Source: Micrococcus sp. EYE_212
Lineage (GTDB): Bacteria; Actinomycetota; Actinomycetes; Actinomycetales; Micrococcaceae
Length of the DNA: 64,000 bases
Assembly (NCBI RefSeq): GCF_023147585.1
Contig: NZ_JAHXOZ010000005.1
Coordinates: 1-64,000, forward strand
Direction of reading: 5' to 3'
Each line of letters starts with the position of its first letter. The stretch's first letter is position 1. Made by a program: the position numbers and the translations under genes. This document shows positions 11,164-34,326 of the stretch, one piece after another. The notes below the pieces were generated by a model that saw only the letters and a list, made by a program, of their open reading frames with translations, did no database searches and was not told the DNA's origin.

Positions 11164-11354
11164 AGCCTTTGCGGGCGGCGGCGCCAGTCCCCTCAGCAGG
11201 CGGGCGGCCAGACCCACGCCGGATTGCCGCTGCGGCCAGGCGGTAGCATGACGGGGAACTCAGTTCCTGCGGGCGCCGATTGGTCACAGGTCTTCGCGCC
11301 TCCCTCAGCTCTGCACCGCCTGCCTCCGCCCCCCACCTCTTGGAGAGACCCCAC

Positions 11355-12689: not shown

Positions 12690-12735
12690 CGCGCGTCCCC
12701 ATTCGGTCGCGACTTCGCAGACACCTCCAAGCGGA

Positions 12736-12741
12736 TACCAT
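12736..12741 (+). promoter_or_regulatory. -10 box, leaderless acyltransferase gene
   Basis: TACCAT lies seven bases before ATG 12749, suggesting a separate leaderless transcript inside the plus-strand arm of the polysaccharide island. Confidence 0.55.
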
Positions 12742-12748
12742 CGATCCC

Positions 12749-13240
12749 ATGTCCATGTGGCTCCCCAACCTCCTCTCTGCCATCACGCCCCACACCCGGG
12801 GATTCGCTTTGCGTCAGCGCGTGTACTCGGTCGCCGGGGCCCGCGTGGACCGCACCGCGAAGATCAACGGGACGGCGGTGCTGTCGAACAAGTGGGTCGA
12901 GGTCGGGTCCCAGGCCTGGATCGGCGCGGGATGTCAGCTCATCGGTGGCCCCGGTGCCATGGTGCGGATCGAGGACCGCTGCGACCTCGGCCCCGGTGTC
13001 ATGTTGGTCGTCGGCAGTCACCACCTCGGCGACACCACGCGGCGCGCGGGCCAGGGCTACAGCGCCGGCATCACGGTGGGCGCCGGGACCTGGGTGGGGG
13101 CTCGGGCCACGTTCCTCGCGGGCTCGTCCGTGGGCCGCGGGTGCATGGTAGCGGCCGGTGCCGTCGTGCGCGGCGAGTTCCCAGACAACGTGATGATCGG
13201 CGGGGTCCCGGCGCGCGTTCTTAAACACTTCGACGCGTGA
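12749..13240 (+). CDS. Hexapeptide-repeat acyltransferase
   Basis: A 163-residue left-handed beta-helix acyltransferase (LbetaH). Imperfect hexapeptides run from about residue 30 to 155, for example VEVGSQAWIGAGCQLIG, ITVGAGTWVGARATFLAG and SSVGRGCMVAAGAVV, ending in the family closing segment DNVMIGGVPARVLKHF. GSHHLGDT supplies the probable catalytic His region. It probably O- or N-acetylates a sugar of the island's polysaccharide. It could act as the PglD-like step of bacillosamine synthesis, though it lacks the N-terminal Rossmann-like part of PglD. A TACCAT box seven bases upstream suggests leaderless transcription. Confidence 0.88.
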   Translation: MSMWLPNLLSAITPHTRGFALRQRVYSVAGARVDRTAKINGTAVLSNKWVEVGSQAWIGAGCQLIGGPGAMVRIEDRCDLGPGVMLVVGSHHLGDTTRRAGQGYSAGITVGAGTWVGARATFLAGSSVGRGCMVAAGAVVRGEFPDNVMIGGVPARVLKHFDA

Positions 13241-14624: not shown

Positions 14625-15731
14625 TCACCACCATGGCAGGGGCGGCGGCTCCACTCCAGGCAGCCCCTCACGCCAGTGCTCGATGACGCGCTCGAGGTAC
14701 GCGGCGCCCGCATCAGCGGAGATCGAGGACTCCGCCCAACCCCGCAGCCGATCCCGACCGTCGGCGCTGGGACACTCCTGCGCCCCCGCCCACGCGACCG
14801 CCGCCCGTATGCCATTCTCGGTCGGTTCAAACCGGTATCCCTGCAGGTCTGACCGAACTACCTGGGCCGCGCCGGCAGCGCTGGAGACCAACACCCTCGT
14901 CCCGGACAAGAGGGCCTCGGAGACGACCGCTCCCCATCCGTCATACCGCGAAGGCAGGACCAGGAAGTCCGCGGTCGCCATGAGCTGACGCACCACGGGA
15001 TTCGGCAGCGCTCCGCTGACGGTGAGGTGCTGCGGGTGTTGCGCCGCGAGCTCGTGTATCTCCTCCCCGGCCGGCCCCGAGCCGACGATCCGCATCCGCA
15101 GGCCGGCACGGACGGCGGCCCGCGCGAACGGGACGATGTTCTTGTTGCCGTCGAGGCGGCCCACGTAGAGGATCTGCCCTGCGGCTGTCTCCTCGGATGT
15201 CCCCCCGGAAGCCTCTGCGTGGGGCGAGAGCCAGTACGCGAAGGGGGCGACCTTCGCGGCAGGCACCCCCGCTCGCCGGAGCTGGCCCACGCCGCCCTGG
15301 CCCGTCGTCAGGAAGTGCCCCCCTCCCCGGGAGAACCGGCGAACCCACCGGCGGGTCCGCATCCACCAGTTCGCTCGGCGGGGCAGGGTGTTCAACTGCC
15401 ACGGCTCCACGTATCCAATGTGGAATGCGCCCGATTGGACCGCTGTCTCACGGGCCCGCACCTCGAATGGTGTGCGGCCGATGCCGGAGATCACGTGGAT
15501 GGTCTCCTGCGTCCAGGACTCGGCGACTTTTGGAGGCACCGGGACGTCTTCCGGCGCGATGACGACACGGGCGTCGCCGTGATCCAGGGCCTGCTCCCAG
15601 CCCTGCGCGAGCCGGCGTGTCGCCACTGGCTTTCGCGCGACCACATCGACAGTGTGGCCCCGCCCGGCCAGAGCCGAGAGGAACGCCGCCTGATGGAGTG
15701 AGGGGACGGGTTGCCAGAAGACGAACTTCAT
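14625..15731 (-). CDS. GT4-family glycosyltransferase
   Basis: A 368-residue GT-B enzyme. The donor-binding half carries ILYVGRLDGNKNIVPFARA near residue 205 and LVLPSRYDGWGAVVSEALL near 285, the E-x7-E block of GT4 enzymes. The start ATG 15731 overlaps the stop of the Wzy gene (ATGA), so the two are translationally coupled. The start MKFVFWQPVPSLHQ is typical; upstream in-frame starts would lie inside the polymerase gene. It likely adds one sugar to the repeat unit; donor and linkage are not predictable from sequence. Confidence 0.87.
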   Translation of the reverse strand: MKFVFWQPVPSLHQAAFLSALAGRGHTVDVVARKPVATRRLAQGWEQALDHGDARVVIAPEDVPVPPKVAESWTQETIHVISGIGRTPFEVRARETAVQSGAFHIGYVEPWQLNTLPRRANWWMRTRRWVRRFSRGGGHFLTTGQGGVGQLRRAGVPAAKVAPFAYWLSPHAEASGGTSEETAAGQILYVGRLDGNKNIVPFARAAVRAGLRMRIVGSGPAGEEIHELAAQHPQHLTVSGALPNPVVRQLMATADFLVLPSRYDGWGAVVSEALLSGTRVLVSSAAGAAQVVRSDLQGYRFEPTENGIRAAVAWAGAQECPSADGRDRLRGWAESSISADAGAAYLERVIEHWREGLPGVEPPPLPWW

Positions 15732-16963
15732 GAGCTCCTCGCTTCGATTCTCAATCCCCAGGCGATGTCCTGCTCCGACCAGGCCCTGGAGTTTCTTCCT
15801 GCACGCCGCATGTGCGGCGCCGGGGGTTTCTCCGTCAACAGAGCGGAGAACACGAGGAAGGTCATCACGGTGAACGAGTTGCCGAAGGTGAAGAGCCAGC
15901 CCTCGAATTGCACGTTCGCCAGGATCGCCACGAACGCCGCCGCTCCGAAGCGGGTCCCCCGCGTTCTGGCGAGGATCGCCAGCAGGATCCCCGCCATGAG
16001 CGCGAGCCCCCACCAGCCGAATTCGTACGCGGCCTTGAGGAAGACGTTGACTCCTGCCTCACTCTGGACCGAGGCGGATCCGCCGCCGAACCCGAACGGC
16101 ATGCCGCGGCGGATGTCCGCCAGCGCCAGCGTCCAGTAGTGGGACCGGGAGTCGTTGGTCCTGGTCAGGCCGGTGTCGCCGTCCGAGGTCGTGAACTCCT
16201 CGGGCGAGGTCGCCAACTGCACGACACTGAACACCAGCACACCGAGCATGAGGGCGCGGATCCGCCAGTCGGAGAAGATCCTCCAGGCCGCGAGCACAAG
16301 AAACAGCGCCGTCGCGAGGGCGCCGGCCCGGGACGCTGTCCACACGAGGGTGAGCATGACCAGCACCCAGTAGACGACCATGACCCAGCGCCGACGGATC
16401 ACCACGCTCGCGAGCGCCGTCACGAGGGCCATGATCGCGAGGGCGTTGGCGTTCAGGAACAGGCCGCGCAACCGGCCGGCCTCGATCGAGCTGCCAATCC
16501 CCGCGATCCCCATCAGCAGCGAGGAGATGACGAGCAGACCGGAGGCGACGAACACGCACCAGAGCAGATCGCGTGGGGTGAAGATCGTCCTGGCCGCCCA
16601 CAGGAGGGCGAAGGCGATCGCCGTGCTGGTGAAGGTGGCCGCCGTCTGAGGGACGTTCACCGTCCATCCGAGGGAGACGACCGTAGTGATCAGCAGCGCG
16701 GCGAGGGACACCAGCAGGACACCGTTTCTCTGGTGAAGCATCCGTCGGCGCGTGCCCACCCAACGGACGAGCAGCCCTAGCATGATCACGACCATGCCGG
16801 GACGGGTATCCACACCCGGTCCAACCTGGAGCATGGGAACGGTGTACAGCAGCAGGCCGATGACGAGGGAGACGCGCGGGGCCCACGCCGAGAACAACAC
16901 CGTGAAGCTGACCGCCAGCAAGCCGCCCACCACCAGGACCAGCGTGTCGATCAGCATGGGCAT
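15728..16963 (-). CDS. Wzy-like polysaccharide polymerase / O-antigen ligase family protein
   Basis: A 411-residue membrane protein with about ten hydrophobic segments and a long extracytoplasmic loop near residues 255-310 (SPEEFTTSDGDTGLTRTNDS and following). The loop plus the segment TASRAGALATALFLVLAAW matches the Wzy_C/WaaL family layout. In this context it most likely polymerises flipped repeat units. It is coupled to the downstream GT4 gene by an ATGA overlap and lies 60 bases after the CapG-like gene. Confidence 0.82.
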   Translation of the reverse strand: MPMLIDTLVLVVGGLLAVSFTVLFSAWAPRVSLVIGLLLYTVPMLQVGPGVDTRPGMVVIMLGLLVRWVGTRRRMLHQRNGVLLVSLAALLITTVVSLGWTVNVPQTAATFTSTAIAFALLWAARTIFTPRDLLWCVFVASGLLVISSLLMGIAGIGSSIEAGRLRGLFLNANALAIMALVTALASVVIRRRWVMVVYWVLVMLTLVWTASRAGALATALFLVLAAWRIFSDWRIRALMLGVLVFSVVQLATSPEEFTTSDGDTGLTRTNDSRSHYWTLALADIRRGMPFGFGGGSASVQSEAGVNVFLKAAYEFGWWGLALMAGILLAILARTRGTRFGAAAFVAILANVQFEGWLFTFGNSFTVMTFLVFSALLTEKPPAPHMRRAGRNSRAWSEQDIAWGLRIEARSS

Positions 16964-17023: not shown

Positions 17024-18154
17024 TCACCGCCGGATCCCGTGACGCTGGTGGTGCGTCGCCGCCTGGGAGCGGATGTAGTTCAGCACACGCCGCGAGGAGT
17101 CCTCGATGGTGTAGTCCGTCGGCAGGGAGGCGGGGCCATCCGCCTGGAAGTCTGCGATGACCATGCGGACCGCGTCCACCACGTCCGCAGGCTCCAGCCC
17201 TGTCGCGATGATCGCCCCGGTGTCGATCGCCTCGGGGCGTTCGATCGCGTCGCGGAGCGTCACCGCCGGGAACCCCAGCATGGAGGACTCCTCGGAGATG
17301 GTCCCCGAATCGGAGATCACGCAACGCGCATGGAGCTGCAGCTTGTTGTAGTCGTGGAACCCCAGGGGTTCGTGCAGTCGAATCGCACTGGAAGCGGAGA
17401 GGTCGAACTGCTCGAGACGCTTGCGCGTGCGCGGGTGCGTGGAGACCAGAAGCGGCACCCCCTGGTCCTCTGCCACCGCCTGCAGGGACTCCAGCACCTT
17501 CTCCAGCCGGTCCTGGCGGTCCACGTTCTCCTCACGATGCACGCTGGCCAGCAGGTACTCCCCCGCGTCCAGCTCGAGCCGCGCGAGCACGTCCGAGGCG
17601 TCGATCTGATCTCGGTACGCGGTGAGCACCTCGTTCATTGGAGAACCCATCACCATGACGTCTCGCGGGTGCAGGCCCTCGGCCAAGAGGTTCCGGCGGG
17701 AGTGCTCGGTGTACACGAGGTTGTAGTCGCTGACATGGTCCACAAGGTGACGGTTGATCTCCTCGGGGACGTTCGGATCGAAGGAGCGGTTGCCCGCCTC
17801 CAGATGGAACACGGGCACCTTCATCCGCCTGCCCATGAGGGCGGACACACAGCTGTTGGTGTCACCGAGCACGACCATGGCATCCGGCTTCTCCTCCAGC
17901 AGCACCCGCTCGGTGCCCTTGAGCACGTCGCCGAGGACGGCTCCCAGGGAGCTGGTGTCCGCTTCGAGGAAGTGGTCCGGCCGGCGAAGGCCGAGGTCTT
18001 CGAAGAACACCTCATTGAGGTTGTAGTCGTAGTTCTGCCCGGTGTGGACCAGCACATGGTCCACATGCTTCTCCAACCGGCGGATCACGCACGCCAGGCG
18101 GATGATCTCGGGGCGGGTGCCCACGACGGTCATGACTTTCAGGCGACCGCTCAT
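17024..18154 (-). CDS. capG: UDP-N-acetylglucosamine 2-epimerase family, CapG-like
   Basis: A non-hydrolysing UDP-sugar 2-epimerase of 376 residues with a GT-B-like fold. LKVMTVVGTRPEIIRLACVI is the family N-terminus, HTGQNYDYNLNEVFFEDLG follows, and VFHLEAGNRSFDPNVPEEINR and SDSGTISEESSMLGFPAVT carry conserved active-site residues. Directly downstream of CapF and CapE homologues, it should perform the last step to UDP-N-acetyl-L-fucosamine (UDP-L-PneNAc to UDP-L-FucNAc), as in Staphylococcus aureus. ATG 18154 is used; a GTG two codons upstream (18160) would overlap the CapF stop as GTGA and is an equal alternative. Confidence 0.9.
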   Translation of the reverse strand: MSGRLKVMTVVGTRPEIIRLACVIRRLEKHVDHVLVHTGQNYDYNLNEVFFEDLGLRRPDHFLEADTSSLGAVLGDVLKGTERVLLEEKPDAMVVLGDTNSCVSALMGRRMKVPVFHLEAGNRSFDPNVPEEINRHLVDHVSDYNLVYTEHSRRNLLAEGLHPRDVMVMGSPMNEVLTAYRDQIDASDVLARLELDAGEYLLASVHREENVDRQDRLEKVLESLQAVAEDQGVPLLVSTHPRTRKRLEQFDLSASSAIRLHEPLGFHDYNKLQLHARCVISDSGTISEESSMLGFPAVTLRDAIERPEAIDTGAIIATGLEPADVVDAVRMVIADFQADGPASLPTDYTIEDSSRRVLNYIRSQAATHHQRHGIRR

Positions 18155-18156
18155 GG

Positions 18157-19251
18157 TCACACCACCTCAGGGATCGTGTCGGGGTTCGTGGGATCGAAGA
18201 TGTCGTTGGTCCAGAACGCGGTGTACAGAGTGGACGCACCCACGTTGGTGATCTTGTGTGACACGAGCGTGGGCATGTCCACCGAGACAGGCTGCTCGCC
18301 GTTCACCCGGAACACGTGGACCTCGTCGGTGCCCATCTTCCGCAGAGAGATCTCCGCCTCCCCCGCCAGCACCGTGAAGCGCTCCACCTTGCGACGGTGG
18401 TAGTGGTCGCCTCGAGTGACGCCCGGAGCGGTCGTGGAGAACGACGTCTGCCCGGTGCCGCCCCGGGAACGCACGATCTCGAAGAAGGAACCTCGTACAT
18501 CCCCATGACGCGTGATGGGCAGGGGCAGCCCATGGGGATAGAGGTAGGACCGGTACGTGTTGAACAGGTCCCGGTCGAAGTCAGTGGCCAGATCCGGGAA
18601 CTCGGTGCGCTTATACGTGCGGGCCATGTCTCCCAGGCGGGCGGCGAGCCCGCTCACCGTCTTGTGAACCGCGAGGGTGTCCATGGCTGCGACGGGCACG
18701 GCGCCGACGAGCACGTCCGCCGCATGCTGGGCATGCAACAGGGTCAGCTCCTTGTCCTGCTGCACCTCCGGTGTCTCCCCGGCGGCGATCAGGTGGCAGA
18801 ACGTGGCTGTCACCGCGTTGTAGAACGGACGCCCGAACTCCCCGAACAGATTCGGCAGGCGGATGTCCTCGTACTCAGCGCCCCGGTTCCGCGCCTGAGT
18901 GCCCAGCACGTCCGCTGCTCCCGTCTTCGCCTCGCCATAGACCGATCCGTTGGCGGCCTGGGTGCTGTTGGCGAAGACCACGCGAGAGGGAACGGAGTCG
19001 ACCTGCCCGAGAACCTCGGCCACCTGCCGCGCGAACCGGTTGTTGCCCTCGGCGACCTCCTGGTCCGTGCCTCGGTTCACGCCGGCAAGGTGCAGCAGCT
19101 GGTCCGCGCCGTCCAGGGCCGCACGTGCCGCCTCCGGGTCGAAGGAGTCCCCCACGGGCAGGAGGGCGACCTCGTGGCCGTGCTCCTGGAGCGCGGCCCG
19201 CGTGTGGAGCCCGAGGAAACCACGACCTCCCGTCAACACATAGCGCGCCAT
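18157..19251 (-). CDS. capF: CapF-like bifunctional reductase/epimerase (SDR plus cupin)
   Basis: A 364-residue protein. The N-terminal SDR domain opens RYVLTGGRGFLGLHTRAALQ (NADPH loop). The C-terminal cupin (about residues 250-364) shows GDHYHRRKVERFTVLAGEAE, the zinc-binding His/Glu pattern. This two-domain layout is distinctive of CapF, in which the cupin epimerises and the SDR part reduces the 4-keto sugar made by CapE. The gene lies two bases after CapE and just before CapG. Confidence 0.92.
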   Translation of the reverse strand: MARYVLTGGRGFLGLHTRAALQEHGHEVALLPVGDSFDPEAARAALDGADQLLHLAGVNRGTDQEVAEGNNRFARQVAEVLGQVDSVPSRVVFANSTQAANGSVYGEAKTGAADVLGTQARNRGAEYEDIRLPNLFGEFGRPFYNAVTATFCHLIAAGETPEVQQDKELTLLHAQHAADVLVGAVPVAAMDTLAVHKTVSGLAARLGDMARTYKRTEFPDLATDFDRDLFNTYRSYLYPHGLPLPITRHGDVRGSFFEIVRSRGGTGQTSFSTTAPGVTRGDHYHRRKVERFTVLAGEAEISLRKMGTDEVHVFRVNGEQPVSVDMPTLVSHKITNVGASTLYTAFWTNDIFDPTNPDTIPEVV

Positions 19252-19253
19252 GG

Positions 19254-20294
19254 TCAGCCTTCCTTGGTCGGAATGCCCGCGAGTGCCAGCTCGCGGCGGA
19301 CGTCCGGAAGAGTCAGCAGCAGTCGCTCGACGTCCTCCACGGACATGAGCGGAACGGTGTGGGAGTCGTAGTCATCGTACTGCGTGTGTGCCTTGTCTCC
19401 TTCTTCCACATAGACCTTGTAGTTCAGGTCGCGGGCATCGGCCTGGATGCGGAAGTAGTCCCCCATGTCCTCAGCGCGGGAGAGCTCCTCGCGGCTGGCC
19501 AGCGCCTCGGAGACCTTCTCCGCATGGCGGGTGCCGATGATGTCCACGCGGGCATCGGAGTGGAAGAGGTTGATCACTGCCTGTGCCAGGGCGCCGATCG
19601 TGCAGGAAGGAGCCTTGCGGATGAACAGGTCACCCTGCTCGGCGTGCTCCCAGGCGAACTCCACGAGGGACACGGACTCGGAGAGGGACATCATGAAGCG
19701 GGTCATCTCCGGGTTGGTCACCGTGAGGTTCTTCCCAGCCTTGAGCTGGCGGATGAAGAGGGGGATCACGGAGCCCCGGGAATACATGACGTTGCCGTAG
19801 CGCACGCAGGAGACGGTGGTGGCGGCCGTGGGGTTGTTCAGGCCGTGGGACAGAGCCACCTTCTCCATGAGCGCCTTGGACATGCCCATCGCGTTGACGG
19901 GGTACACCGCTTTGTCCGTGGAGAGGCACACGAGCGACCGCACCCCGGCCTCATCCGAGGCGCGCACCACGTTGGCGGAGCCGTTCACATTGGTGCGCAC
20001 CGCCTCCATGGGGAAGAACTCACACGAGGGGACCTGCTTGAGGGCAGCCGCGTGGAACACGTAGTCCACGTCGCGGACCGCCCGCTCCATGCTCGTGTAG
20101 TCGCGGATGTCGCCCAGGTAGAACCGCAGGCGCTCGTCGCCGATGTCGTGGCGCATCTGGTCCTGCTTCGCCTCGTCCCGGCTGAGGACGCGGATCTCCG
20201 CGATGTCGCCCCTGTCGAGGAGCTTCTTGGTGACGGTGTGGCCGAAGGAACCGGTGCCACCGGTGATCAGGATCTTGAGGTCGGTCTCAGTCAT
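19254..20294 (-). CDS. capE: CapE-like UDP-GlcNAc 4,6-dehydratase/5-epimerase
   Basis: A 346-residue extended SDR enzyme, soluble with no membrane segment. KILITGGTGSFGHTVTKKLL is the nucleotide loop; STDKAVYPVNAMGMSKALME gives the catalytic Lys in an MxxxK setting instead of YxxxK, as described for CapE/FlaA1-type dehydratases. It makes the 4-keto-6-deoxy sugar that starts the L-FucNAc branch. The start ATG 20294 is preferred over an ATG 30 bases upstream because GGGAG lies six bases before it and MTETDLKILITGG is a compact family start. Confidence 0.92.
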   Translation of the reverse strand: MTETDLKILITGGTGSFGHTVTKKLLDRGDIAEIRVLSRDEAKQDQMRHDIGDERLRFYLGDIRDYTSMERAVRDVDYVFHAAALKQVPSCEFFPMEAVRTNVNGSANVVRASDEAGVRSLVCLSTDKAVYPVNAMGMSKALMEKVALSHGLNNPTAATTVSCVRYGNVMYSRGSVIPLFIRQLKAGKNLTVTNPEMTRFMMSLSESVSLVEFAWEHAEQGDLFIRKAPSCTIGALAQAVINLFHSDARVDIIGTRHAEKVSEALASREELSRAEDMGDYFRIQADARDLNYKVYVEEGDKAHTQYDDYDSHTVPLMSVEDVERLLLTLPDVRRELALAGIPTKEG

Positions 20295-20342
20295 CGAGGA
20301 CTCCCGGGTTGGTGAGGACGTCATGAAAGGAAGCTGGGCGGG

Positions 20343-20933
20343 TCAGTCGCGGACCACAGTGCGCAGAGTGTCGGCGAGGATGCGCAGGTCGCCCGTGAAG
20401 GAACGCGTCCGGACGTAGCCGACATACGCGGCTGCCTTCCGAGGCAGAATGCTGCTGACGTAGTGGGCCTCCGGGTCCTCCACCGCAGCCAACTCGTCGG
20501 CCTCGTTGCGGAACTCGATGGAGGCGGGGTCCGTGATCCCCGGGCGGACTGAGAGGATGGTGGGCCGCAGGTCCGCCGGCCACTGTGCCACGTACTGGGG
20601 AACCTCCGGCCTCGGCCCCACGCAGGACATCGCCCCGCGCAGCACGTCGTAGAGCTGGGGCAGCTCGTCGAGCTTGGTCCGGCGCAGCACGCGTCCCACC
20701 GGGGTGACCCGCGGGTCGCCAGCGTGGGACACGGCGGTGCCGTCGTGGTCCACCCGCATCGTGCGGAACTTGTGGATGGTGAACGGGCGTCCGCCCAGGC
20801 CGACTCGCTCCTGACGGAACAACGCCGGCCCGGGCGAGGTGGTCTTCACGGCCACCGCGACACCGGCGAGCACTGGGGCGCTCAGCGCCAGGGCCGCGCC
20901 GCTGGCGACGATGTCGAAGGCACGCTTCAGCAT
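20343..20933 (-). CDS. PglC-like phosphoglycosyl transferase (initiating sugar transferase)
   Basis: A monotopic membrane enzyme of 196 residues, the size of the minimal catalytic domain (PglC) rather than the 450-residue WbaP type. LKRAFDIVASGAALALSAPV is the single re-entrant membrane helix. SPGPALFRQERVGLGGRPFT and FRTM follow; RTKLDELPQLYDVLRGAMSC with GPRPEVPQYV carries the Asp-Glu catalytic dyad and the uridine-site Pro-Arg-Pro. It transfers a phospho-sugar from UDP to undecaprenyl phosphate to start the repeat unit. TGATG couples it to the aminotransferase gene. Confidence 0.9.
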   Translation of the reverse strand: MLKRAFDIVASGAALALSAPVLAGVAVAVKTTSPGPALFRQERVGLGGRPFTIHKFRTMRVDHDGTAVSHAGDPRVTPVGRVLRRTKLDELPQLYDVLRGAMSCVGPRPEVPQYVAQWPADLRPTILSVRPGITDPASIEFRNEADELAAVEDPEAHYVSSILPRKAAAYVGYVRTRSFTGDLRILADTLRTVVRD

Positions 20934-22108
20934 CAGCCGACCACGCGCCGCACGGCATCGATCACGGTGTCCACCTGGTCCTGGGTCATCGACGAGAAGA
21001 TGGGCAGGCTCACCGTGCGCTCGAACTCTGCACTGGCCACCGGGAGGTCGGCCTCGGTGACTGCACAGTTATCGCGCCAGTACGGGTGCAGGTGGAGCGG
21101 GATGAAGTGGACGGAGGTGCCCACCCCTTCCTCGCTCATACGCTCGATGAAGCGATTGCGGTGGAGCCCCGCACGGTCCTCGTCCACGCGGACGATGTAC
21201 AGATGCCACGCATGCGCATCAGGGTCGGTCTCGACCACCGGGCAGGTGATGGGCAAGTCCGCGAAGGCCTTCGTGTACTGCTCCGCAATGGCTCGGCGGG
21301 CATCGCGCATCTGGTGGGCTCGCCGCAGCTGGACCCGGCCCATCGCGGCAGCGGTGTCCGGCAGGTTGTACTTGTACCCCGGTGCCACCACCTCGTACTG
21401 CCACGACGGCGTGGTGGACTGGTAGCGGTTGAAGACGTCACGGCTGATTCCGTGCAGCCGCATCGTGCGCATGCGGGTGGCCAGCTCGGGGTCTTTGACC
21501 ACCACCATGCCGCCCTCGCCGGTGGTCATGGTCTTCGTGGCATAGAAGCTGTAGACCACGGCGTCGGAGTCGGAATCGCCCACCCATCGGCCCGCGGACC
21601 GCACCGGAAAGGCATGCGCCGCATCCTCGATGACCTTGAGGCCGAACTCGTCGGCGAGGGCCCGCAGGGGGCCGGCCTCCACCGGCATGCCCGCCATGTG
21701 CACGGGCATGATCGCCACCGTCTGTGCGGTGATCTTCCGACGGGCGTCGGCGAGGTCGATGTTCAGTGTCACCGGATCGGCATCCACCAGGACGGGGTTA
21801 GCCCCCATGTAGCGGACCACCTCCGCGGTCGACGTGAAGGTCCAGGTGGGCACGAGGACGTCATCGCCGGGACCCACTCCGAGGGCCTCCACCGCGAGGT
21901 GAAGACCGGCAGTCGCGGAGTTCACCGCGATGCATTGGGCGTCCTCTGCGCCCAGGAACTGGCCCATCTCCTTCTCGAAGGCGGCCGCGTTGGGCCCGGT
22001 GGTCAGCCAGCCGGAACGGACGGTGTCCGCCACGGCCTGCACTTCCTCCTCCGTGATGTCCGGAAGGGCGAAGGGAAGGAACGATCGCGTCGTGGGGGTG
22101 TGCGTCAC
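20933..22108 (-). CDS. DegT/DnrJ/EryC1-family sugar aminotransferase, PglE-like
   Basis: A PLP-dependent nucleotide-sugar aminotransferase of 391 residues. SGWLTTGPNAAAFEKEMGQF, VNSATAGLHLAVEALGVGPG and VIEDAAHAFPVR are family blocks, and VVYSFYATKTMTTGEGGMV holds the PLP-binding Lys (about residue 190). With the membrane-bound dehydratase gene nearby it would produce UDP-4-amino-4,6-dideoxy-GlcNAc. The start is GTG 22108, overlapping the stop of the GT4-GNAT gene by four bases. The acetylation step could be done by the GNAT domain of that neighbour. Confidence 0.9.
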   Translation of the reverse strand: MTHTPTTRSFLPFALPDITEEEVQAVADTVRSGWLTTGPNAAAFEKEMGQFLGAEDAQCIAVNSATAGLHLAVEALGVGPGDDVLVPTWTFTSTAEVVRYMGANPVLVDADPVTLNIDLADARRKITAQTVAIMPVHMAGMPVEAGPLRALADEFGLKVIEDAAHAFPVRSAGRWVGDSDSDAVVYSFYATKTMTTGEGGMVVVKDPELATRMRTMRLHGISRDVFNRYQSTTPSWQYEVVAPGYKYNLPDTAAAMGRVQLRRAHQMRDARRAIAEQYTKAFADLPITCPVVETDPDAHAWHLYIVRVDEDRAGLHRNRFIERMSEEGVGTSVHFIPLHLHPYWRDNCAVTEADLPVASAEFERTVSLPIFSSMTQDQVDTVIDAVRRVVG

Positions 22109-23994
22109 GATGTGACTCCTGCCTCGGTCGGGCGGGAGACCGCCAGATCTGTGATGTATCGGTTCATGGGGCGCCCCTCGGGCGTGGTGTAGGTGGTGTC
22201 GAGGCTCCAGCCGGCGCGTTGGTAGAACGCGTTCACGGCGTCGTTGCCCGAGGCGTCAGTCGTCAGGAAGGCACGATCGGCGCCGAGCCCACTCGCTCGG
22301 CGAGTCCAGCCCTCCAGAACCAGACGTCCTACTCCGGCGCCCTGACGGCCCGGTGCGACGAAGACAGAACTGAGCAGCGCACCATCCGGATCATCGACCC
22401 CCGGCGCCCCGCCACGGTAGCCGACGGCGCGGAGAAGCCGCGGCGCGCGGCGCGGAGCCCGTAGCGCCGCCTTCGCGCTCTGGTAGGCGAACCCCGCCCA
22501 ACGGCGCCGCAGAAGTCGCCGGAAGAATCCCGCCGGAGACGTGCTCCCCACGGCCGCTGCGACCACATGACCTGCGCCATCCTCGACGACGGCTGTGACG
22601 GCATCGGGGTCCTCGAGGAATCCGGCGTAGAACTCCCTCAAGAACCCCTCTCCCAGTTGGGAGAGGAAGAAGTCAGGGAATGCGGCCCGATGGAGGGCCG
22701 CGACCTGGGGGATATGGCGCCGGCGCAACCGGTGCGCCGTGAATTCCTCATTCTCACCGCGACGGGCTGGGCGGCCCGCGACCTCCTCAAGCAGCTGCTC
22801 CACGGCATCCGTGGTGGTGCGCACGCTGAACTGGTCCTCGTACGCCCGCCCGGCGTTGGTTCCCCACTGCGCCAGGCTGACCCGCCCCATTGCGGCCAGA
22901 CGATCGATGGCCTCGCGGATTGCGCGAGGGCTCGATTGGTCTACCCCGAGCCCCGCCTCGGACCCCTCCACGACCGCAACGACATCACCCGTGGCCGCGA
23001 CGAGGGCGGGAAGTCCGCTGGCCATGGTTGCCTGTGTCTTGCTTGGCAGCGTGAGTGGTGTCAGGGGGTCCGCGACCAGGCTGATGTACGCCACATCCGC
23101 CGTCGCCATGAGATCCGGCATCCGCTCAGGAGCCACGCGCCCGATGAACCGGGCAGCCGGCACCTGACGGGCACGCCGCCGCAGGTCCGCCTCCATGGTC
23201 CCACCACCAGCGAGCAGGCAGACCAGCTGCGAGGGGTCCACCCCTTCCAGTGCCTCGATGAGCGTCTCCAGGCCTTGGGCTGCACCCATGGACCCTGCGT
23301 ACAGCAGGACGACGGTGTCCGCGCTGATCTCGAGGCCGGCCCGCAGATCGGAACCGGGTTGCCGGAAGACCTGTTCGTTGCCGGGCTTGGGAATGTAGAC
23401 GAGCTTGTCCGCAGCCACACCCCGGCTGCGGAGGACGTCTGCCACGGACGGCGCGATGTGCACCACCGCGTCGGATGCGCGGTACATGGCATCAACCCAG
23501 CGGTGCAGGAGGGCGCTCGCCAGCTGACTCCGCATGCCCGCGGCACCGAATCCGGAGACGAGAAGAGTGTCCGGCCACAGGTCCGCGACCTCCGTGACGA
23601 GCGGGACGCGGTGCAGGAGGCGACTGGCCAGCATGGGCAGGGCTACGGTGATGGGCGAGTAGTTCACCCAGACGACATCCGAGCCACGGAGGTGCCGCAC
23701 CCCCCAGAGTGTGGAGGAGACCGCGAAGGAGCCGTAGTTCAGGATGCGTCCGACGAGGCCGGTTCCATGGTTGGGATACAACGGCGTTCTCACCACGCGG
23801 ACGCCGTCCCGATGCTCCACTGCACACCTCTGCTGGTGATAGCCGGGGGCGATCGTACCCGTCGGGTAGTTGGGGAAGCCCGTCACCACCGTGACGTCAT
23901 GCCCTCGACGTGCCAGCTCGCGTGCCAGCACACCGGGAAGGGCGGCGGGGCCCGGCTCGGGGTCATACCACTGGGTGATCATGCCGACCCTCAT
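22105..23994 (-). CDS. GT4 glycosyltransferase fused to GNAT acetyltransferase
   Basis: A 629-residue two-domain protein. Residues 1 to about 395 form a WbuB-like GT4 enzyme: MRVGMITQWYDPEPGPAALP start, VVLLYAGSMGAAQGLETLIE near 245, PLTLPSKTQATMASGLPALV near 330. After a linker, residues about 412-629 form a GNAT domain beginning EFTAHRLRRRHIPQVAALHR, with acetyl-CoA loop VFVAPGRQGAGVGRLVLEGW and AFYQRAGWSLDTTY near the end. The coding frame is continuous across the join, so it is a genuine fusion. Both ends overlap neighbours by four bases (ATGA upstream, GTGA downstream). Role inferred: sugar transfer plus N-acetylation of the 4-amino sugar. Confidence 0.88.
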   Translation of the reverse strand: MRVGMITQWYDPEPGPAALPGVLARELARRGHDVTVVTGFPNYPTGTIAPGYHQQRCAVEHRDGVRVVRTPLYPNHGTGLVGRILNYGSFAVSSTLWGVRHLRGSDVVWVNYSPITVALPMLASRLLHRVPLVTEVADLWPDTLLVSGFGAAGMRSQLASALLHRWVDAMYRASDAVVHIAPSVADVLRSRGVAADKLVYIPKPGNEQVFRQPGSDLRAGLEISADTVVLLYAGSMGAAQGLETLIEALEGVDPSQLVCLLAGGGTMEADLRRRARQVPAARFIGRVAPERMPDLMATADVAYISLVADPLTPLTLPSKTQATMASGLPALVAATGDVVAVVEGSEAGLGVDQSSPRAIREAIDRLAAMGRVSLAQWGTNAGRAYEDQFSVRTTTDAVEQLLEEVAGRPARRGENEEFTAHRLRRRHIPQVAALHRAAFPDFFLSQLGEGFLREFYAGFLEDPDAVTAVVEDGAGHVVAAAVGSTSPAGFFRRLLRRRWAGFAYQSAKAALRAPRRAPRLLRAVGYRGGAPGVDDPDGALLSSVFVAPGRQGAGVGRLVLEGWTRRASGLGADRAFLTTDASGNDAVNAFYQRAGWSLDTTYTTPEGRPMNRYITDLAVSRPTEAGVTS

Positions 23995-25793
23995 GCCGCG
24001 TTCCCCGTCGATGCGCCGTCGTGCACGGGCTGTGTGCCCTGGGCACGCTGCAACCATTCCGCGTAATCGAGTGCGTCGGGGCCGAGGGTACTCACGTCGG
24101 CGTGGGAGATCTTGGGGTGGAAGGGTCGGTTGTCTGTCTCCCCCTCTCCGATCAGCTCCTCGTGGAGCTTCTCGCCGTGGCGGAGTCCCGTGAACACGAG
24201 GGGGACGTCCTTGCCGGACATCTCGATCATCCGCTGGGCGATGCCCAGGATGTTCACCGGTTCTCCCATGTCCAGGATCATCACCTCACCCGGCCGGCCG
24301 ATGGCTCCGGCCTGGATCACGAGGTGGCTGGCCTCGGGAATGGTCATGAAGTACCGGGTAACGTCCGGGTGCGTGACCGTGACCGGGCCCCCCTGCTCGA
24401 TGAGCCTGCGGAACGTGGGGAGCATGGAGCCCCGACTGCCGATCACATTGCCGAACCGCACCGAGAGATAGGGCTTCTGAGTCTGCCCGGCCATCCAGGC
24501 GGTCAGCTTCTCCGCCACGCGCTTGGAATGACCCAGCATGGACGTGGGGTTGGCTGCCTTGTCCGTGGAGATGTTGATGAAGACGTCCACGTCCGCGGCG
24601 CGGGCGGCCTCCAGGACGTTGAGCGTGCCGAGGACGTTGGACTTCCACGCCTCCTCCGGATACTGCTCCAGCATCGGCAAGTGCTTGAGTGCCGCCGCAT
24701 GATAGACCACGTGGGGCCGGCGTTCCGCAAAGACTTGCTTGAGTGCTTCGGCGTCCCGAATGTCCGCCAGGACGACGTCCTTGGTGTCCAGCAAGCCGTG
24801 GCCCACGGTGCCCAGCTGGGCGTCCTGCAGGGCGGTCTCGTCGCGGTCCAGCATGATCAGCTCGGCTGGCGAGTATTTGATGATCTGCTGGCAGAGCTCA
24901 GAACCGATGGAGCCTCCCGCGCCGGTGACCAGCACCCGCTTGCCGGAGAGATACTCGGCCGCCGTGTCCACCGCCGTGTCCACGGGCTCCCGCCCGATCA
25001 GGTCCTCGATGGAGAGGCTGCGCAGATCTTGGAGGCCGACAGCATCCGTGAGCTGGCGATCCAGCACGGGAAGCACCCGGACGTTGACGCCGGTGGGGGC
25101 CGCCACGTCTGCCACATCTCGGATGAGATGGTTGTCTGCGTCGGAGATGGCCACGATCAGCTCGGTGGCACCCGTCCGCTCCACCGCCTTCGGGAGATCC
25201 CGCAGGGTGCCGGCCACCGGTACGCCGCGGACGAGACGGCGCTGCAGGCTGCGGTCGTCATCGAGGAAGCCCACGGGTCGATACGACGAGTGCGAGTCGA
25301 TCTGCATACGTCGCGCCAGGCTCTCTCCCAGCATGCCGGCCCCGTAGATCAGCGTGGGCGCGGCATTGTCTCCCGGCCCGAAGCGCGACTCGCGGCGGAG
25401 ACGGTGCACGTAGCGCAGGCCGAGCATCGTCACCAGGGCGACGGGCCCGGCGACCACCATGGTGCTGCGGGGGACCTGCCACGCCGGACCCACGATGAGG
25501 AGAACGGCCGTCACCACTGCAGAGACGCCGAGCACCAGAATGGTGAGGCCCCGGACCTCATCGAAAGTGCCGTAGCCGTACCTGCCCCGATAGAGCCCCA
25601 GGAGGTACCCGCTCACGAGCTGGACCGTCACCACCAGGATGAAGATCGCAGTCAAGCCCGTCCAATGGGCGGCGTCCATGACGAACTCGAAGCGGAACAG
25701 GGTTGCCAGCAGAAGAGCGAGGGCCCAGGCTCCCACGTCCAGTGCGAGGAAACGGACCCAGTCTCGTCGGCGTCGTTTGACGCTGATGGTCAC
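23991..25793 (-). CDS. Membrane-bound NDP-sugar 4,6-dehydratase, PglF/CapD-like
   Basis: A 600-residue protein of the FlaA1-like family. Four membrane helices occupy about residues 10-125, followed by a CoA-binding-like Rossmann domain (APTLIYGAGMLGESLARRMQ) and a large SDR domain from about residue 290 (GKRVLVTGAGGSIGSELCQQ). STDKAANPTSMLGHSKRVAE holds the catalytic Lys. It converts UDP-GlcNAc to the 4-keto-6-deoxy sugar, the first step to diacetylbacillosamine or D-FucNAc/D-QuiNAc. The start is GTG 25793, with GGAGG seven bases upstream; earlier in-frame starts have no such site. It overlaps the GT4-GNAT gene by four bases. Confidence 0.93.
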   Translation of the reverse strand: MTISVKRRRRDWVRFLALDVGAWALALLLATLFRFEFVMDAAHWTGLTAIFILVVTVQLVSGYLLGLYRGRYGYGTFDEVRGLTILVLGVSAVVTAVLLIVGPAWQVPRSTMVVAGPVALVTMLGLRYVHRLRRESRFGPGDNAAPTLIYGAGMLGESLARRMQIDSHSSYRPVGFLDDDRSLQRRLVRGVPVAGTLRDLPKAVERTGATELIVAISDADNHLIRDVADVAAPTGVNVRVLPVLDRQLTDAVGLQDLRSLSIEDLIGREPVDTAVDTAAEYLSGKRVLVTGAGGSIGSELCQQIIKYSPAELIMLDRDETALQDAQLGTVGHGLLDTKDVVLADIRDAEALKQVFAERRPHVVYHAAALKHLPMLEQYPEEAWKSNVLGTLNVLEAARAADVDVFINISTDKAANPTSMLGHSKRVAEKLTAWMAGQTQKPYLSVRFGNVIGSRGSMLPTFRRLIEQGGPVTVTHPDVTRYFMTIPEASHLVIQAGAIGRPGEVMILDMGEPVNILGIAQRMIEMSGKDVPLVFTGLRHGEKLHEELIGEGETDNRPFHPKISHADVSTLGPDALDYAEWLQRAQGTQPVHDGASTGNAA

Positions 25794-25827
25794 CTGACGA
25801 CCTCCACGAAGTATGTACCGCACTCCA

Positions 25828-27081
25828 TCACAGCACCGACACGTTCTCTGCGGACGGCACGACATGCCGGGTATCGAATACCCGGACCCCGAGGTCCGCC
25901 AGCGCCTGGTAGTCCACGTCGGTGTGGTCAGTCAGCACCACCACGATGTCCTGGCCGCGCAGGTCCTCCACGCCCTGAGCGCGCGCCACGCGCTCCGGCC
26001 AGGCACGATCCAGGATCCAGGTGTCCAGGGCGGTGACCTCGGCCCCGTACTCGTGGAGGAGACGGATCACCACCTCGGAGGGGGATTCCCGGAGATCGGA
26101 CGAGTCCCTCTTGTAGGCCAGGCCCGCGAGGGCCACCCTCGCCCCGTTCAGGGCCTTCTTGTCCTGGTTCAGCAGCCTCATCACGCGCTCGACCACGTGG
26201 ACGGGCTGGTTCTCGTTGATGTCGTTGGCGAGTTCGACGAACCGGAAGGTCTGCCCCAGGTCCTTCTTCACCGCCCACGAGAGGTAGCTGGGGTCCACCG
26301 GCAGGCAGTGCCCGCCCACGCCTGGACCGGGCGTGAACTTCATGAATCCGAAGGGCTTGGTGTCTGCCGCCCGGATCGAGTCCCATACGTCCACGCCCAG
26401 CTGGTGGGCGAAGACGGCGAGCTCGTTGACGAGGGCGATGTTCACGTGCCGGAAGGTGTTCTCCATGAGCTTGGTCAGCTCCGCCTCCCGCATCCCCTTC
26501 ACGGGGACGGGAGTGTCGATGATCGTCGCGTAGAACTCGAGCACCTTCTCCAGGGATTCGGGGGTGAGACCGGAGACGACCTTGGGCGTGGTCTGGAACG
26601 TCCAGTCGGTGCGTCCCGGGTCGATCCGTTCCGGGGAGTACCCCACGTGGAAGTCCGTCCCCGCGGTGAGACCGGAGCCGCGCTCCAGGATGGGCACCAG
26701 CAGCTCGTCCGTGGTGCCGGGGTAGGTGGTGGATTCGAGGATCACGGTGCAGCCGGGGCGGATGTGCTCGGCCAGCGAGGCCCCGGAGGCCTCGATGAAG
26801 GTCAAGTCCGGGAGGGAGTCGCGCAGCGGGGTGGGCACGGTGATCACCGCGACGTCGAAACCGGCGGCGTCCGCGTAGTCCCGGGAAGGCTGGAAGCGGC
26901 CCGAATCGAGGGCGGCCTGGATCTCCGCGTTCGGGATGTCCTCCACATAGGAGCGGCCGGCGAGCAGATCAGTCACCCGCACCTCGCTGAGGTCGAGCCC
27001 GATGACATGGTGACCCACCTCGATCGCGCGCATCGACACCGGCAACCCCACATACCCCTGACCCACAACCACCAATTTCAT
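25828..27081 (-). CDS. UDP-N-acetylhexosamine 6-dehydrogenase (WbpA/WecC family)
   Basis: A 417-residue NAD-dependent nucleotide-sugar dehydrogenase. KLVVVGQGYVGLPVSMRAIE is the NAD loop; ILESTTYPGTTDELLVPILE and YSPERIDPGRTDWTFQTTPK are family blocks; TPGPGVGGHCLPVDPSYLSW carries the catalytic Cys. The ESTTYPGTT and GFMKFTPGPGVGGHC blocks resemble WbpA (UDP-GlcNAc) more than UDP-glucose dehydrogenases. It supplies a HexNAc-uronic acid. Start ATG 27081 follows GGAAGGA. It is the first gene of the long minus-strand arm of the island. Confidence 0.9.
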   Translation of the reverse strand: MKLVVVGQGYVGLPVSMRAIEVGHHVIGLDLSEVRVTDLLAGRSYVEDIPNAEIQAALDSGRFQPSRDYADAAGFDVAVITVPTPLRDSLPDLTFIEASGASLAEHIRPGCTVILESTTYPGTTDELLVPILERGSGLTAGTDFHVGYSPERIDPGRTDWTFQTTPKVVSGLTPESLEKVLEFYATIIDTPVPVKGMREAELTKLMENTFRHVNIALVNELAVFAHQLGVDVWDSIRAADTKPFGFMKFTPGPGVGGHCLPVDPSYLSWAVKKDLGQTFRFVELANDINENQPVHVVERVMRLLNQDKKALNGARVALAGLAYKRDSSDLRESPSEVVIRLLHEYGAEVTALDTWILDRAWPERVARAQGVEDLRGQDIVVVLTDHTDVDYQALADLGVRVFDTRHVVPSAENVSVL

Positions 27082-27396
27082 CGGTCGTCCTTCCGCTTCT
27101 CCGCGCTCACCGCACGAGGCTCTTCTCGCTGTCCTTGCAGCGGGCCTCTGGATTAACCCCCATGACAGAGGAGCATAGCGCCTCAGAAACAGACAGAAGC
27201 CAGTCATTTCATGGACACATCTCTGATCATGCATCAATAGATCCAGGGTGAATTGCAGATGAACGCCTAGGAATGGCCCCGCCATGACTAGGCTGTTCGG
27301 AACGACGAGGGCAGCCACGCGGCTCGGCTCCGAGCGGTGCGCCCGGAATCGGACGCCTGGGCCCTTCACCCGACGACAAGATGAGGCAGGGCACCG
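27082..27396. promoter_or_regulatory. Divergent intergenic region of the polysaccharide island
   Basis: A 315-base gap between the divergent dehydrogenase and Wzz-kinase genes, clearly more AT-rich than the surroundings. It must hold promoters for both arms. The best -10 candidates are TATGCT on the minus strand (27177-27172) and TAGGCT on the plus strand (27289-27294), both without a good -35. GCCTAG (27265-27270) and CTAGGC (27288-27293) form an inverted repeat that could be an operator. Confidence 0.45.
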
Positions 27397-28836
27397 ATGC
27401 ACGAGCACGCGATGTCGGAAGAAGCCGGCATGCCCGGCGAGGAGCAGGGCGGCTTCACGCTCCGCGACGTGATGGCGGTCTTCCGGCGCCGCTGGCTGCC
27501 CGTCCTCCTCGCGACCCTCCTGGGACTCGGCCTGGCCGCCCTCCTCACCGCGCTCCAACCTCGCCTCTACACGTCCTCGAGCACCGCGGTGGTGAACCCC
27601 GTGGTGACGGACAACCCGGCGGCCGCCCTGAGCCAGGACACCGTGGCGAAGTCGCGGGCCGTGCAGTACAACGAGCTGGCCAAGTCCATGCTCGTGGCCA
27701 CGCGTGCCGTGGATCTGGTGGACTTCCCGCTCACCCCCGGCCAGGCGCGCGGCGCCGTCACCACCACTGTGCCCACGGGCACGTCGCTGATCCAGGTGCG
27801 GGCGGAGTGGGCGGATGCCCAGCAGGCCGCGCAGCTCGCGGACGCGTGGGTGGAGGCCCTCACCCAGGAGGCGGACACGCTCGCCCGGGCGGACGGGGCC
27901 ACGCCCCAGGTGCAGATCAACCGCATGCTCCCGGCCACCGTGCCCGGGAGCCACTCCTCCCCGCGCGAGGCGCTGAACCTGCTGGTGGGCGGCGCGCTCG
28001 GCCTTGCCGCGGGCGTGGGCCTCGCCCTGCTCCTGGAGGCGCTGGACCGGCGGATTCGCGGCACGGAGGACCTCCAGCGGGCCGGGCTCACGCCCATCGG
28101 CATGATCCCCGCGTCCATCGAGCTCTCCGGTGACCGCCGGGTGCTCCTCGAGGGAGGCTCGAATCCGGACGCCACGCACTTCCGCGCCCGCGAGGCCTTC
28201 AACGAGCTGCGCATCAACCTGCAGTTCATGAATCCGGACGATCCGCCGCGCATCATCACCGTGACCTCCACGAACCAGGCAGACGGCAAGTCCACAGTGG
28301 CGGCAAACCTCGCGGCCACCCTGGCCCACGCCGGGGTGCCCTCGGTGCTCGTGGACGCGGACCTGCGCCGGCCCACCGTGGCCACCACCTTCGGTCTGCT
28401 CGCCGGGGCCGGTCTCAGCGATGTCGTGGTGGGGCGTGCGGACCTCGCCGACGTGATCCAGGCCCCGGCCGAGTTCGGGGGCCTGCTGGTGCTGCCTGCC
28501 GGCCAGATCCCCCCCAACCCGACGGAACTGCTCATGTCCGACCGCTTCAAGCAGGCTCTGGAGGCGCTGGCCGAGACCCACATGGTGATCGTGGACGCGC
28601 CCCCGCTGCTCGCCGTCTCCGACGCCGCCGTCATGGCCACGCGCCTGGACGGCGCCCTGCTGGTGCTGGACGCGAAGTCCACCACGCGCGATGACGTGCG
28701 CCAGGCCGTGACTGCGCTGGAGCGTGTGCACGCCCCCATCCTCGGCGCGGTGCTGAACCGGGTGGAGAGCAAGGGCAAGGACGGCCGGTACGGGTACTAC
28801 CGCTCGGACTACACCACGGCCGCCCCGTCGGCCTGA
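27397..28836 (+). CDS. Wzz-type chain-length regulator fused to BY-kinase
   Basis: A 479-residue polysaccharide co-polymerase. Two membrane helices (about residues 33-52 and 190-212) flank an extracytoplasmic Wzz domain. A cytoplasmic kinase domain follows, with Walker A VTSTNQADGKSTVAANLA, Walker A' VLVDADLRRPT and Walker B MVIVDAPPLLAVSD. The C-terminal GRYGYYRSDY is a tyrosine cluster, the autophosphorylation site of such kinases. It controls chain length and export with Wzy/Wzx. No tyrosine phosphatase gene is in the window. The start may be a later ATG (27430), preceded by GGAAG; the first ATG has a poor ribosome site. Confidence 0.9.
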   Translation: MHEHAMSEEAGMPGEEQGGFTLRDVMAVFRRRWLPVLLATLLGLGLAALLTALQPRLYTSSSTAVVNPVVTDNPAAALSQDTVAKSRAVQYNELAKSMLVATRAVDLVDFPLTPGQARGAVTTTVPTGTSLIQVRAEWADAQQAAQLADAWVEALTQEADTLARADGATPQVQINRMLPATVPGSHSSPREALNLLVGGALGLAAGVGLALLLEALDRRIRGTEDLQRAGLTPIGMIPASIELSGDRRVLLEGGSNPDATHFRAREAFNELRINLQFMNPDDPPRIITVTSTNQADGKSTVAANLAATLAHAGVPSVLVDADLRRPTVATTFGLLAGAGLSDVVVGRADLADVIQAPAEFGGLLVLPAGQIPPNPTELLMSDRFKQALEALAETHMVIVDAPPLLAVSDAAVMATRLDGALLVLDAKSTTRDDVRQAVTALERVHAPILGAVLNRVESKGKDGRYGYYRSDYTTAAPSA

Positions 28837-34313: not shown

Positions 34314-34320
34314 GGGCTCC

Positions 34321-34326
34321 ATTCTA
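34321..34326 (-). promoter_or_regulatory. -10 box, internal leaderless tsaD promoter
   Basis: TAGAAT on the minus strand, seven bases before ATG 34313, in the 27-base gap after rimI. Confidence 0.6.

What the first reader, a model, noticed from the sequence alone, without database searches (positions are those of the whole stretch)
22105..23994. GT4 glycosyltransferase fused to a GNAT acetyltransferase within a bacillosamine-like gene set
One continuous 629-codon frame joins a GT4 enzyme to a GNAT domain with a clear acetyl-CoA loop. On either side, coupled by four-base overlaps, lie a PglF-like dehydratase and a PglE-like aminotransferase, with a PglC-like initiating transferase next. The only missing step for UDP-diacetylbacillosamine is N-acetylation, normally done by the hexapeptide enzyme PglD. 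The GNAT half could do this, making a protein that both finishes the first sugar and adds the next one. The fusion is seen; the role is inferred.
Basis: partly seen in the sequence, partly recalled or inferred. Interest (0 to 1): 0.62.

Follow-up and report, generated by a model that had tools for sequence, protein, structure and literature searches.

The report
Fused sugar-acetylating and sugar-adding capsule enzyme
One gene in a bacterial capsule cluster joins an acetyl-adding enzyme to a sugar-adding enzyme; relatives show that the acetyl-adding half takes the place of the usual enzyme that finishes the first sugar of the chain, which here is probably a galactose-type relative of bacillosamine and not bacillosamine itself.

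Summary
The fusion is real. Window 22105-23994 is on the minus strand: one ORF of 629 codons, GT4 (about aa 1-405), a short flexible linker (aa 410-416), then GNAT (about aa 416-620). It keeps its full length at 52-61% identity in four other Micrococcaceae genomes and recurs in a Nocardioides, so it is no sequencing error. The 'bacillosamine' label is not supported. The aminotransferase falls with ArnB and Spr1654 (split 100/100 from PglE), and the real PglF/PglE/PglC/PglD set occupies the corresponding place in another species of the same genus. Best reading: the GNAT half 4-N-acetylates UDP-2-acetamido-4-amino-2,4,6-trideoxyhexose, probably the galacto (axial) isomer, in place of PglD. The GT4 half is a WbuB/CapL-like L-FucNAc transferase that adds the second sugar. 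The fusion thus links the steps before and after the phosphoglycosyl transferase. Sugar identity and both activities are inferred, not assayed. New variant of a known kind.

The parts
22105..23994 (-). GT4-GNAT fusion, 629 aa; GT4 about aa 1-405 (23994-22780), linker about aa 406-416, GNAT about aa 416-620 (22749-22135)
23991..25865 (-). CapD/PglF-type membrane UDP-GlcNAc 4,6-dehydratase (Polysacc_synt_2 plus CoA_binding_3); true start perhaps the GTG near 25793; overlaps the fusion by 4 bases
20933..22108 (-). DegT-family sugar 4-aminotransferase, ArnB/Spr1654(AATGal)-type, not PglE-type; Phe91 where ArnB has Trp89, which blocks N-acetylated sugars; overlaps the fusion by 4 bases
20343..20933 (-). 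monotopic phosphoglycosyl transferase (Bac_transf), initiating enzyme; shares 1 base with the aminotransferase stop
19254..20324 (-). CapE/FnlA-type UDP-GlcNAc 4,6-dehydratase/5-epimerase (UDP-L-FucNAc branch)
18157..19251 (-). CapF/WbjC-type reductase (UDP-L-FucNAc branch)
17024..18160 (-). CapG/WecB-type UDP-HexNAc 2-epimerase (UDP-L-FucNAc branch)
25828..27120 (-). UDP-ManNAc-dehydrogenase-like NDP-sugar dehydrogenase (possible third sugar)
15728..16963 (-). Wzy-like polymerase (membrane protein; called by context and by a homologue in L048)
   Evidence: assignment inferred
14625..16013 (-). second GT4 glycosyltransferase (possible third-sugar transferase)
13278..14567 (+). Wzx-like flippase (Polysacc_synt)
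12626..13240 (+). hexapeptide acetyltransferase without a PglD_N domain, maltose/WcaF O-acetyltransferase-like; not a PglD
27397..28836 (+). Wzz-like chain-length protein with tyrosine kinase domain (call by reading; not domain-scanned)
   Evidence: assignment inferred

Best explanation
A bifunctional enzyme of a Wzx/Wzy-type capsule cluster. Inferred order: CapD-type dehydratase makes UDP-2-acetamido-2,6-dideoxy-4-keto-hexose; the ArnB/Spr1654-type aminotransferase adds the 4-amine, most likely in galacto configuration (UDP-AATGal); the GNAT half acetylates that amine with acetyl-CoA, taking the place of the left-handed-helix enzyme PglD (product UDP-FucNAc4NAc, or UDP-diNAcBac if the amine is equatorial); the monotopic PGT puts the sugar phosphate on undecaprenyl phosphate; the GT4 half adds L-FucNAc from UDP-L-FucNAc (CapE/CapF/CapG); further genes add a third sugar, flip and polymerise. 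The fusion joins the steps just before and just after the PGT step. Shown: the fusion, its conservation, the co-occurrence, the aminotransferase clade, the cassette exchange with PglE/PglD. Inferred: both activities, the stereochemistry, the order. My estimates: GNAT as the 4-N-acetyltransferase of this sugar 0.85; galacto configuration 0.65; GT4 as L-FucNAc transferase 0.75.
For: Fusion conserved in other species. Gene order CapD-fusion-AT-PGT-CapE-CapF-CapG the same in window, G124, G119, G034, G022. 19 of 22 closest GNAT relatives within 10 kb of an aminotransferase always nearer to the window's than to PglE, usually with window-type PGT and CapD; distant GNATs 1 of 13 (Fisher p 6e-6, rows not independent). 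Stand-alone GT4 and GNAT genes adjacent with an overlap in two Nocardioides (L053, L055). In sister clusters the same place is filled by PglE plus PglD (L047 and same-genus L172) or PglE-type plus an ATP-grasp enzyme (L046, L044). Aminotransferase: ArnB 306 bits, Spr1654 215, PglE 71; 100/100 split. PGT and GT4 also differ between the two cluster types. GNAT model pLDDT 90, GNAT fold. GT4: WcaI-family match (160 bits) beside CapEFG. Literature: the WbuB homologue of F. psychrophilum is assigned to add L-FucNAc to Qui2NAc4NR (PMC6519341); CapL adds L-FucNAc to C55PP-D-FucNAc (PMC6441080); PseH and WecD are GNATs that acetylate 4-amines of nucleotide sugars (PMC4363471); PglF plus WcfR gives UDP-AATGal (PMC13063421).
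Against: No enzyme of this GNAT subfamily is known to me to be assayed; its sequence shows no relation to PseH or WecD in a PDB sequence search, and fold matches do not name a substrate. Many window-type aminotransferases have no GNAT nearby, so the pair is not obligatory. C4 configuration is read from the clade alone; an aminotransferase 27% identical to PglE still makes the gluco product (PMC8040287). GT4 is below the WcaI-family cut-off (160 vs 276 bits), so its donor rests on context and analogy.
Confidence: 0.68

Rival explanations
1. One reading: the sugar is UDP-diNAc-bacillosamine (4-amine equatorial) and the GNAT half is simply a non-homologous PglD.
For: CapD-type dehydratase and monotopic PGT are present; sister clusters make this sugar with PglE/PglD; aminotransferases distant from PglE can still make the gluco product (PMC8040287).
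Against: The aminotransferase is on the ArnB/Spr1654 side of a 100/100 branch, PglE and PerA on the other; AT, PGT and acetyltransferase all change together between the two cluster types, as expected for a different first sugar.
Confidence: 0.25
2. The GNAT half acetylates something else (a later sugar, a lipid-linked sugar or a protein), and the 4-amine stays free, as in AATGal polymers.
For: Most window-type aminotransferases in the phylum have no GNAT close by; AATGal is used unacetylated by B. fragilis (PMC13063421); top fold matches include protein and drug acetyltransferases.
Against: Close relatives of the GNAT follow the aminotransferase across phyla, even with different GT4 genes and without CapEFG (L059, L062, L067-L069); in related loci the gene before this aminotransferase is a formyltransferase or methyltransferase instead, which suggests a 4-amine modification slot.
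Confidence: 0.1
3. The hexapeptide enzyme at 12626-13240 is the N-acetyltransferase of the pathway and the GNAT half is redundant.
For: It lies in the same cluster and has a hexapeptide fold.
Against: It lacks the PglD_N domain and matches maltose/WcaF O-acetyltransferases best (63.5 and 57.5 bits; NeuD/PglD family only 44.7, cut-off 160.8), whereas true PglDs of sister clusters score 182-186; it is outside the dehydratase-AT-PGT block.
Confidence: 0.04
4. The fusion has no mechanistic meaning: two adjacent overlapping genes lost a stop codon, and the halves act independently.
For: Adjacent, overlapping stand-alone genes exist (L053, L055); a flexible linker and modest pTM 0.65 suggest loosely tethered domains; other species keep them far apart, with GNAT between CapF and CapG (L052, L054, L058).
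Against: The fusion is kept over 52-61% identity in Micrococcaceae and may have arisen twice (2 changes on the tree; one origin not rejected, p 0.107). This rival is compatible with the chemistry of the best explanation.
Confidence: 0.5

Closest known systems
PglD / NeuD-family (TIGR03570) sugar N-acetyltransferase
   Same: same inferred step: acetyl-CoA-dependent acetylation of the 4-amine of UDP-2-acetamido-4-amino-2,4,6-trideoxyhexose; same place in the gene set
   Different: left-handed beta-helix with PglD_N domain versus GNAT fold; pairs with PglE-type, not ArnB-type, aminotransferase
PseH and WecD (GNAT nucleotide-sugar 4-N-acetyltransferases)
   Same: GNAT superfamily; acetylate a 4-amine made by an aminotransferase on a nucleotide sugar (PMC4363471)
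   Different: no detectable sequence relation here; different sugars; stand-alone proteins
Neisseria PglB (PGT fused to PglD-type acetyltransferase; from general knowledge)
   Same: an acetyltransferase fused to an enzyme of early lipid-linked assembly
   Different: fused partner is the PGT and the acetyltransferase is left-handed-helix type; here the partner is the second-sugar GT4 and the acetyltransferase is a GNAT
S. aureus Cap5 pathway (CapD, CapM, CapEFG, CapL)
   Same: CapD-type dehydratase, monotopic PGT, CapEFG and a GT-B transferase for L-FucNAc as second sugar (PMC6441080)
   Different: CapN reductase is replaced by aminotransferase plus acetyltransferase, so the first sugar is a 4-amino sugar; GT4 carries a GNAT
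Flavobacterium psychrophilum O-polysaccharide (WfpA, a WbuB homologue)
   Same: L-FucNAc transferred onto a lipid-linked 4-N-acylated 2,4-diamino-trideoxyhexose (PMC6519341)
   Different: PglE/PglD-type enzymes, gluco sugar, separate genes
Spr1654 / WcfR-WcfS (AATGal formation and transfer)
   Same: aminotransferase of the ArnB/Spr1654 side and a PGT acting on UDP-AATGal (PMC5936713, PMC13063421)
   Different: no 4-N-acetylation in those pathways; WcfR and WcfS sequences were not compared here

Membership tests
Bacillosamine (Pgl) gene set | PglF/CapD-type UDP-GlcNAc 4,6-dehydratase | tested here: met
Bacillosamine (Pgl) gene set | PglE/LegC-type aminotransferase | tested here: not met
   PglE 71 bits vs ArnB 306; 100/100 split; LegC family 196 vs ArnB family 384 bits
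Bacillosamine (Pgl) gene set | PglD-type left-handed-helix N-acetyltransferase | tested here: not met
   no TIGR03570 match over cut-off anywhere in the genome; cluster hexapeptide enzyme lacks PglD_N
Bacillosamine (Pgl) gene set | monotopic PGT related to PglC | tested here: met
   Bac_transf 183 bits; PglC structure 80 bits; specificity not tested
GNAT superfamily | GNAT profile and fold with acetyl-CoA loop | tested here: met
   QGAGVG motif
Nucleotide-sugar 4-N-acetyltransferase (function) | acetylates the 4-amine of a nucleotide sugar | not testable with these tools
   context only
PseH/WecD subfamilies | sequence or structural grouping with PseH or WecD | tested here: inconclusive
   neither listed
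GT4 (GT-B) glycosyltransferase | Glyco_transf_4 plus Glycos_transf_1 domains | tested here: met
WbuB/CapL/WcaI-type GT4 | WcaI-family profile over cut-off | tested here: inconclusive
   best family but 160 vs 276 bits; WbuB and CapL themselves not compared
ArnB/Spr1654 aminotransferase side | groups with ArnB/Spr1654 apart from PglE/PerA | tested here: met
ArnB proper (UDP-Ara4O substrate) | Trp at the position that excludes 2-N-acetyl sugars | tested here: not met
   window has Phe91, as PseC has Phe (residue role from PMC5936713)

The most novel reading that the evidence does not exclude
The fusion acts as a coupling or gatekeeping enzyme around the PGT step: the GNAT half and GT4 half hold the same sugar before and after it is put on the lipid, so that only acetylated primer is extended (channelling or proof-reading), and the GNAT/ArnB-type pair defines an until now uncharacterised route to UDP-FucNAc4NAc that is exchangeable with the bacillosamine cassette within one genus.
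Probability: 0.2. Interest if true: 0.65.

Novelty: new variant of a known kind. Interest (0 to 1): 0.5.

Why it matters
If true, a GNAT family takes over the PglD step with a different aminotransferase, giving a marker (GNAT plus ArnB-type AT versus PglD plus PglE) to predict which 2,4-diamino-trideoxyhexose starts a capsule repeat from sequence alone. The open-access literature searched here holds hardly anything on FucNAc4NAc (one paper) and no enzyme for it was found. The fusion offers a single protein in which to test coupling across the lipid-priming step.

Tried and rejected
Frameshift or chimera: rejected. Substrate from fold comparison: fold matches are generic GNATs (SsHAT Z 18.4 over 192 residues at 3.6 A, puromycin N-acetyltransferase, RimI-like); PseH and WecD did not appear in the lists, which proves nothing. 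PDB sequence search of the GNAT half: only weak hits, best E 0.0026. PDB search of the GT4 half: one weak hit, no WbuB/CapL structure. Hexapeptide enzyme at 12626 as the PglD: rejected. Broad GNAT relatives in the phylum (E 1e-27 to 1e-11) are not in sugar-aminotransferase clusters, so the functional group is the closer set only. A single origin of the fusion could be neither shown nor rejected. Papers on bacillosamine plus GNAT gave PseH and reviews but no GT4-GNAT fusion.
Full report
OBSERVATION. Window 22105-23994 on the minus strand holds one ORF of 629 codons. Pfam gives GT4 domains at aa 23-380 and a GNAT domain at aa 523-596, above the curated scores for the main families. GC at third positions is even across the junction. 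It also occurs in Nocardioides sp. CGMCC 1.13656 (L057). So the fusion is conserved and is not an error. AlphaFold gives two confident domains with a low-confidence linker at aa 410-416 (mean pLDDT 86.9, pTM 0.65); the GNAT half alone has pLDDT 90.1. The four-base overlaps are ATGA with the dehydratase stop and GTGA with the aminotransferase start.

GENE SET. Read from 25865 downwards: CapD/PglF-type dehydratase, fusion, DegT-type aminotransferase, monotopic PGT, CapE, CapF and CapG (UDP-L-FucNAc branch). This order is the same in the Micrococcaceae loci with the fusion. A UDP-ManNAc-dehydrogenase-like gene, a second GT4, Wzx-, Wzy- and Wzz/kinase-like genes complete a Wzx/Wzy capsule cluster (the last assignments partly inferred).

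WHAT THE GNAT HALF BELONGS TO. A scan of 84,980 species' genomes with the GNAT half gave 22 close relatives. In 19 an aminotransferase of the window's type lies within 10 kb, in each case closer to the window's enzyme than to the PglE-type one; the PGT and a CapD-type dehydratase are usually there too (L049/L050 as L041/L043). Two of the three exceptions are contigs of 3.2 and 5 kb; the third, L051, has the CapEFG and GT4 genes but no AT in the stretch. Hosts include Actinomycetota, Pseudomonadota, Armatimonadota, Acidobacteriota and Thermodesulfobacteriota. In Pseudomonas, Armatimonadota and Syntrophobacterales loci the GNAT keeps the aminotransferase although CapEFG is absent and the GT4 is only 25-30% like the window's. 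Distant GNATs from the same phylum (13 loci) are next to an aminotransferase once; Fisher p 6e-6, with the caution that related rows are not independent. This ties the GNAT to the amino-sugar step and not to L-FucNAc. The reverse does not hold: most of the 27 other window-type aminotransferase loci in the phylum sample lack this GNAT; directly before several of these aminotransferases lies a formyltransferase (L130) or a methyltransferase (L129, L131, L132, L139, L141) (families confirmed for L129 and L130). I read this place as a slot for modifying the new 4-amine.

NOT THE BACILLOSAMINE ENZYMES. The window aminotransferase matches ArnB (306 bits) and Spr1654 (215) far better than PglE (71); NCBIfam agrees (ArnB 384, PseC 345, LegC family 196). 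A tree with reference enzymes puts window and all GNAT-associated aminotransferases on the ArnB/Spr1654 side of a branch with 100/100 support, and PglE, PerA and the PglD-associated ones on the other. ArnB has Trp89, said to exclude N-acetylated sugars, where Spr1654 has Tyr and PseC Phe (PMC5936713); the window has Phe91. From established knowledge, ArnB and AATGal enzymes make the axial (arabino/galacto) amine and PglE and PerA the equatorial one. Bacteroides WcfR makes UDP-AATGal from the very 4-keto sugar that PglF makes (PMC13063421). So galacto is the likelier configuration. The caution is that an enzyme 27% identical to PglE makes the gluco product (PMC8040287).

CASSETTE EXCHANGE. G060 (L047) has CapD, PglE-type AT, PGT, true PglD (TIGR03570, 182 bits over the 160.8 cut-off) and an unfused GT4 (31% identical) followed by the same CapEFG. 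G001 and G110 have a PglE-type AT with an ATP-grasp enzyme. Most telling, another species of the window's own genus (G179, L172) has a 70% identical CapD followed by PglE-type AT, PglC-like PGT and PglD (186 bits), next to tsaD; the window's region also has tsaD nearby, at 33222-34322 (tsaD called by reading). In this comparison the aminotransferase, PGT, acetyltransferase and second-sugar GT change together, as expected if the first sugar changes.

THE GT4 HALF. It best matches the WcaI-family profile (160 bits, below the 276 cut-off) and goes with CapEFG. A WbuB homologue in F. psychrophilum is assigned to add L-FucNAc to Qui2NAc4NR on the lipid (PMC6519341), and CapL was shown to add L-FucNAc to C55PP-D-FucNAc (PMC6441080). 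L-FucNAc as second sugar is therefore the best guess.

HOW IT WORKS. CapD, aminotransferase, GNAT half, PGT, GT4 half, in that order. The fusion spans the steps on either side of the PGT. Whether that gives channelling, or selects acetylated primer, or means nothing beyond joint expression is open. Two Nocardioides have the genes adjacent with an overlap (L053, L055), while Dermatophilaceae have the GNAT between CapF and CapG, so fusion by read-through of neighbours is easy to picture. A concatenated tree needs two changes, but one origin is not rejected (p 0.107).

KNOWN VERSUS NEW. GNATs acting on nucleotide-sugar 4-amines are known (PseH, WecD; PMC4363471), and so are acetyltransferase fusions in such pathways (Neisseria PglB, general knowledge). 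FucNAc4NAc is a known sugar (F. nucleatum ATCC 51191 O-antigen, PMC8048906). What I did not find described is this GNAT subfamily as partner of the ArnB/Spr1654-type enzyme, and its fusion with the second-sugar transferase. That makes it a new variant of a known kind.

Noticed in passing
L172 (G179 contig 207, 5000-23522): A different species of the same genus carries an authentic PglF/PglE/PglC/PglD set beside tsaD, at the corresponding capsule locus: a serotype-like cassette exchange within a genus.
   Followed up: partly
L046:6575-8916, L044:12519-13622, L045:12279-13346: PglE-type clusters in Micrococcaceae with no PglD but an ATP-grasp (PylC-like N domain) protein, in L046 next to an Orn/DAP-decarboxylase-like gene: possible aminoacyl modification of the 4-amine.
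   Followed up: no
L129, L130, L131, L132, L139, L141: The gene directly before ArnB-type aminotransferases in other actinobacterial clusters is a methyltransferase or a formyltransferase, suggesting a variable 4-amine modification slot.
   Followed up: partly
window 11353-12689 and 12626-13240: A PaaK/CapK-like adenylate-forming protein (by reading, not scanned) overlaps a hexapeptide O-acetyltransferase-like gene, just before the flippase gene.
   Followed up: partly
GNAT model aa 75-114 (window about 22527-22408): Three helices inserted between two core strands of the GNAT half, with a PRLLRA-YRG motif shared by most close relatives; possibly the sugar-binding part.
   Followed up: no
L065: In Mobilicoccus caccae the CapD, PGT and GNAT genes of this cluster are split over several frames in the record.
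   Followed up: no
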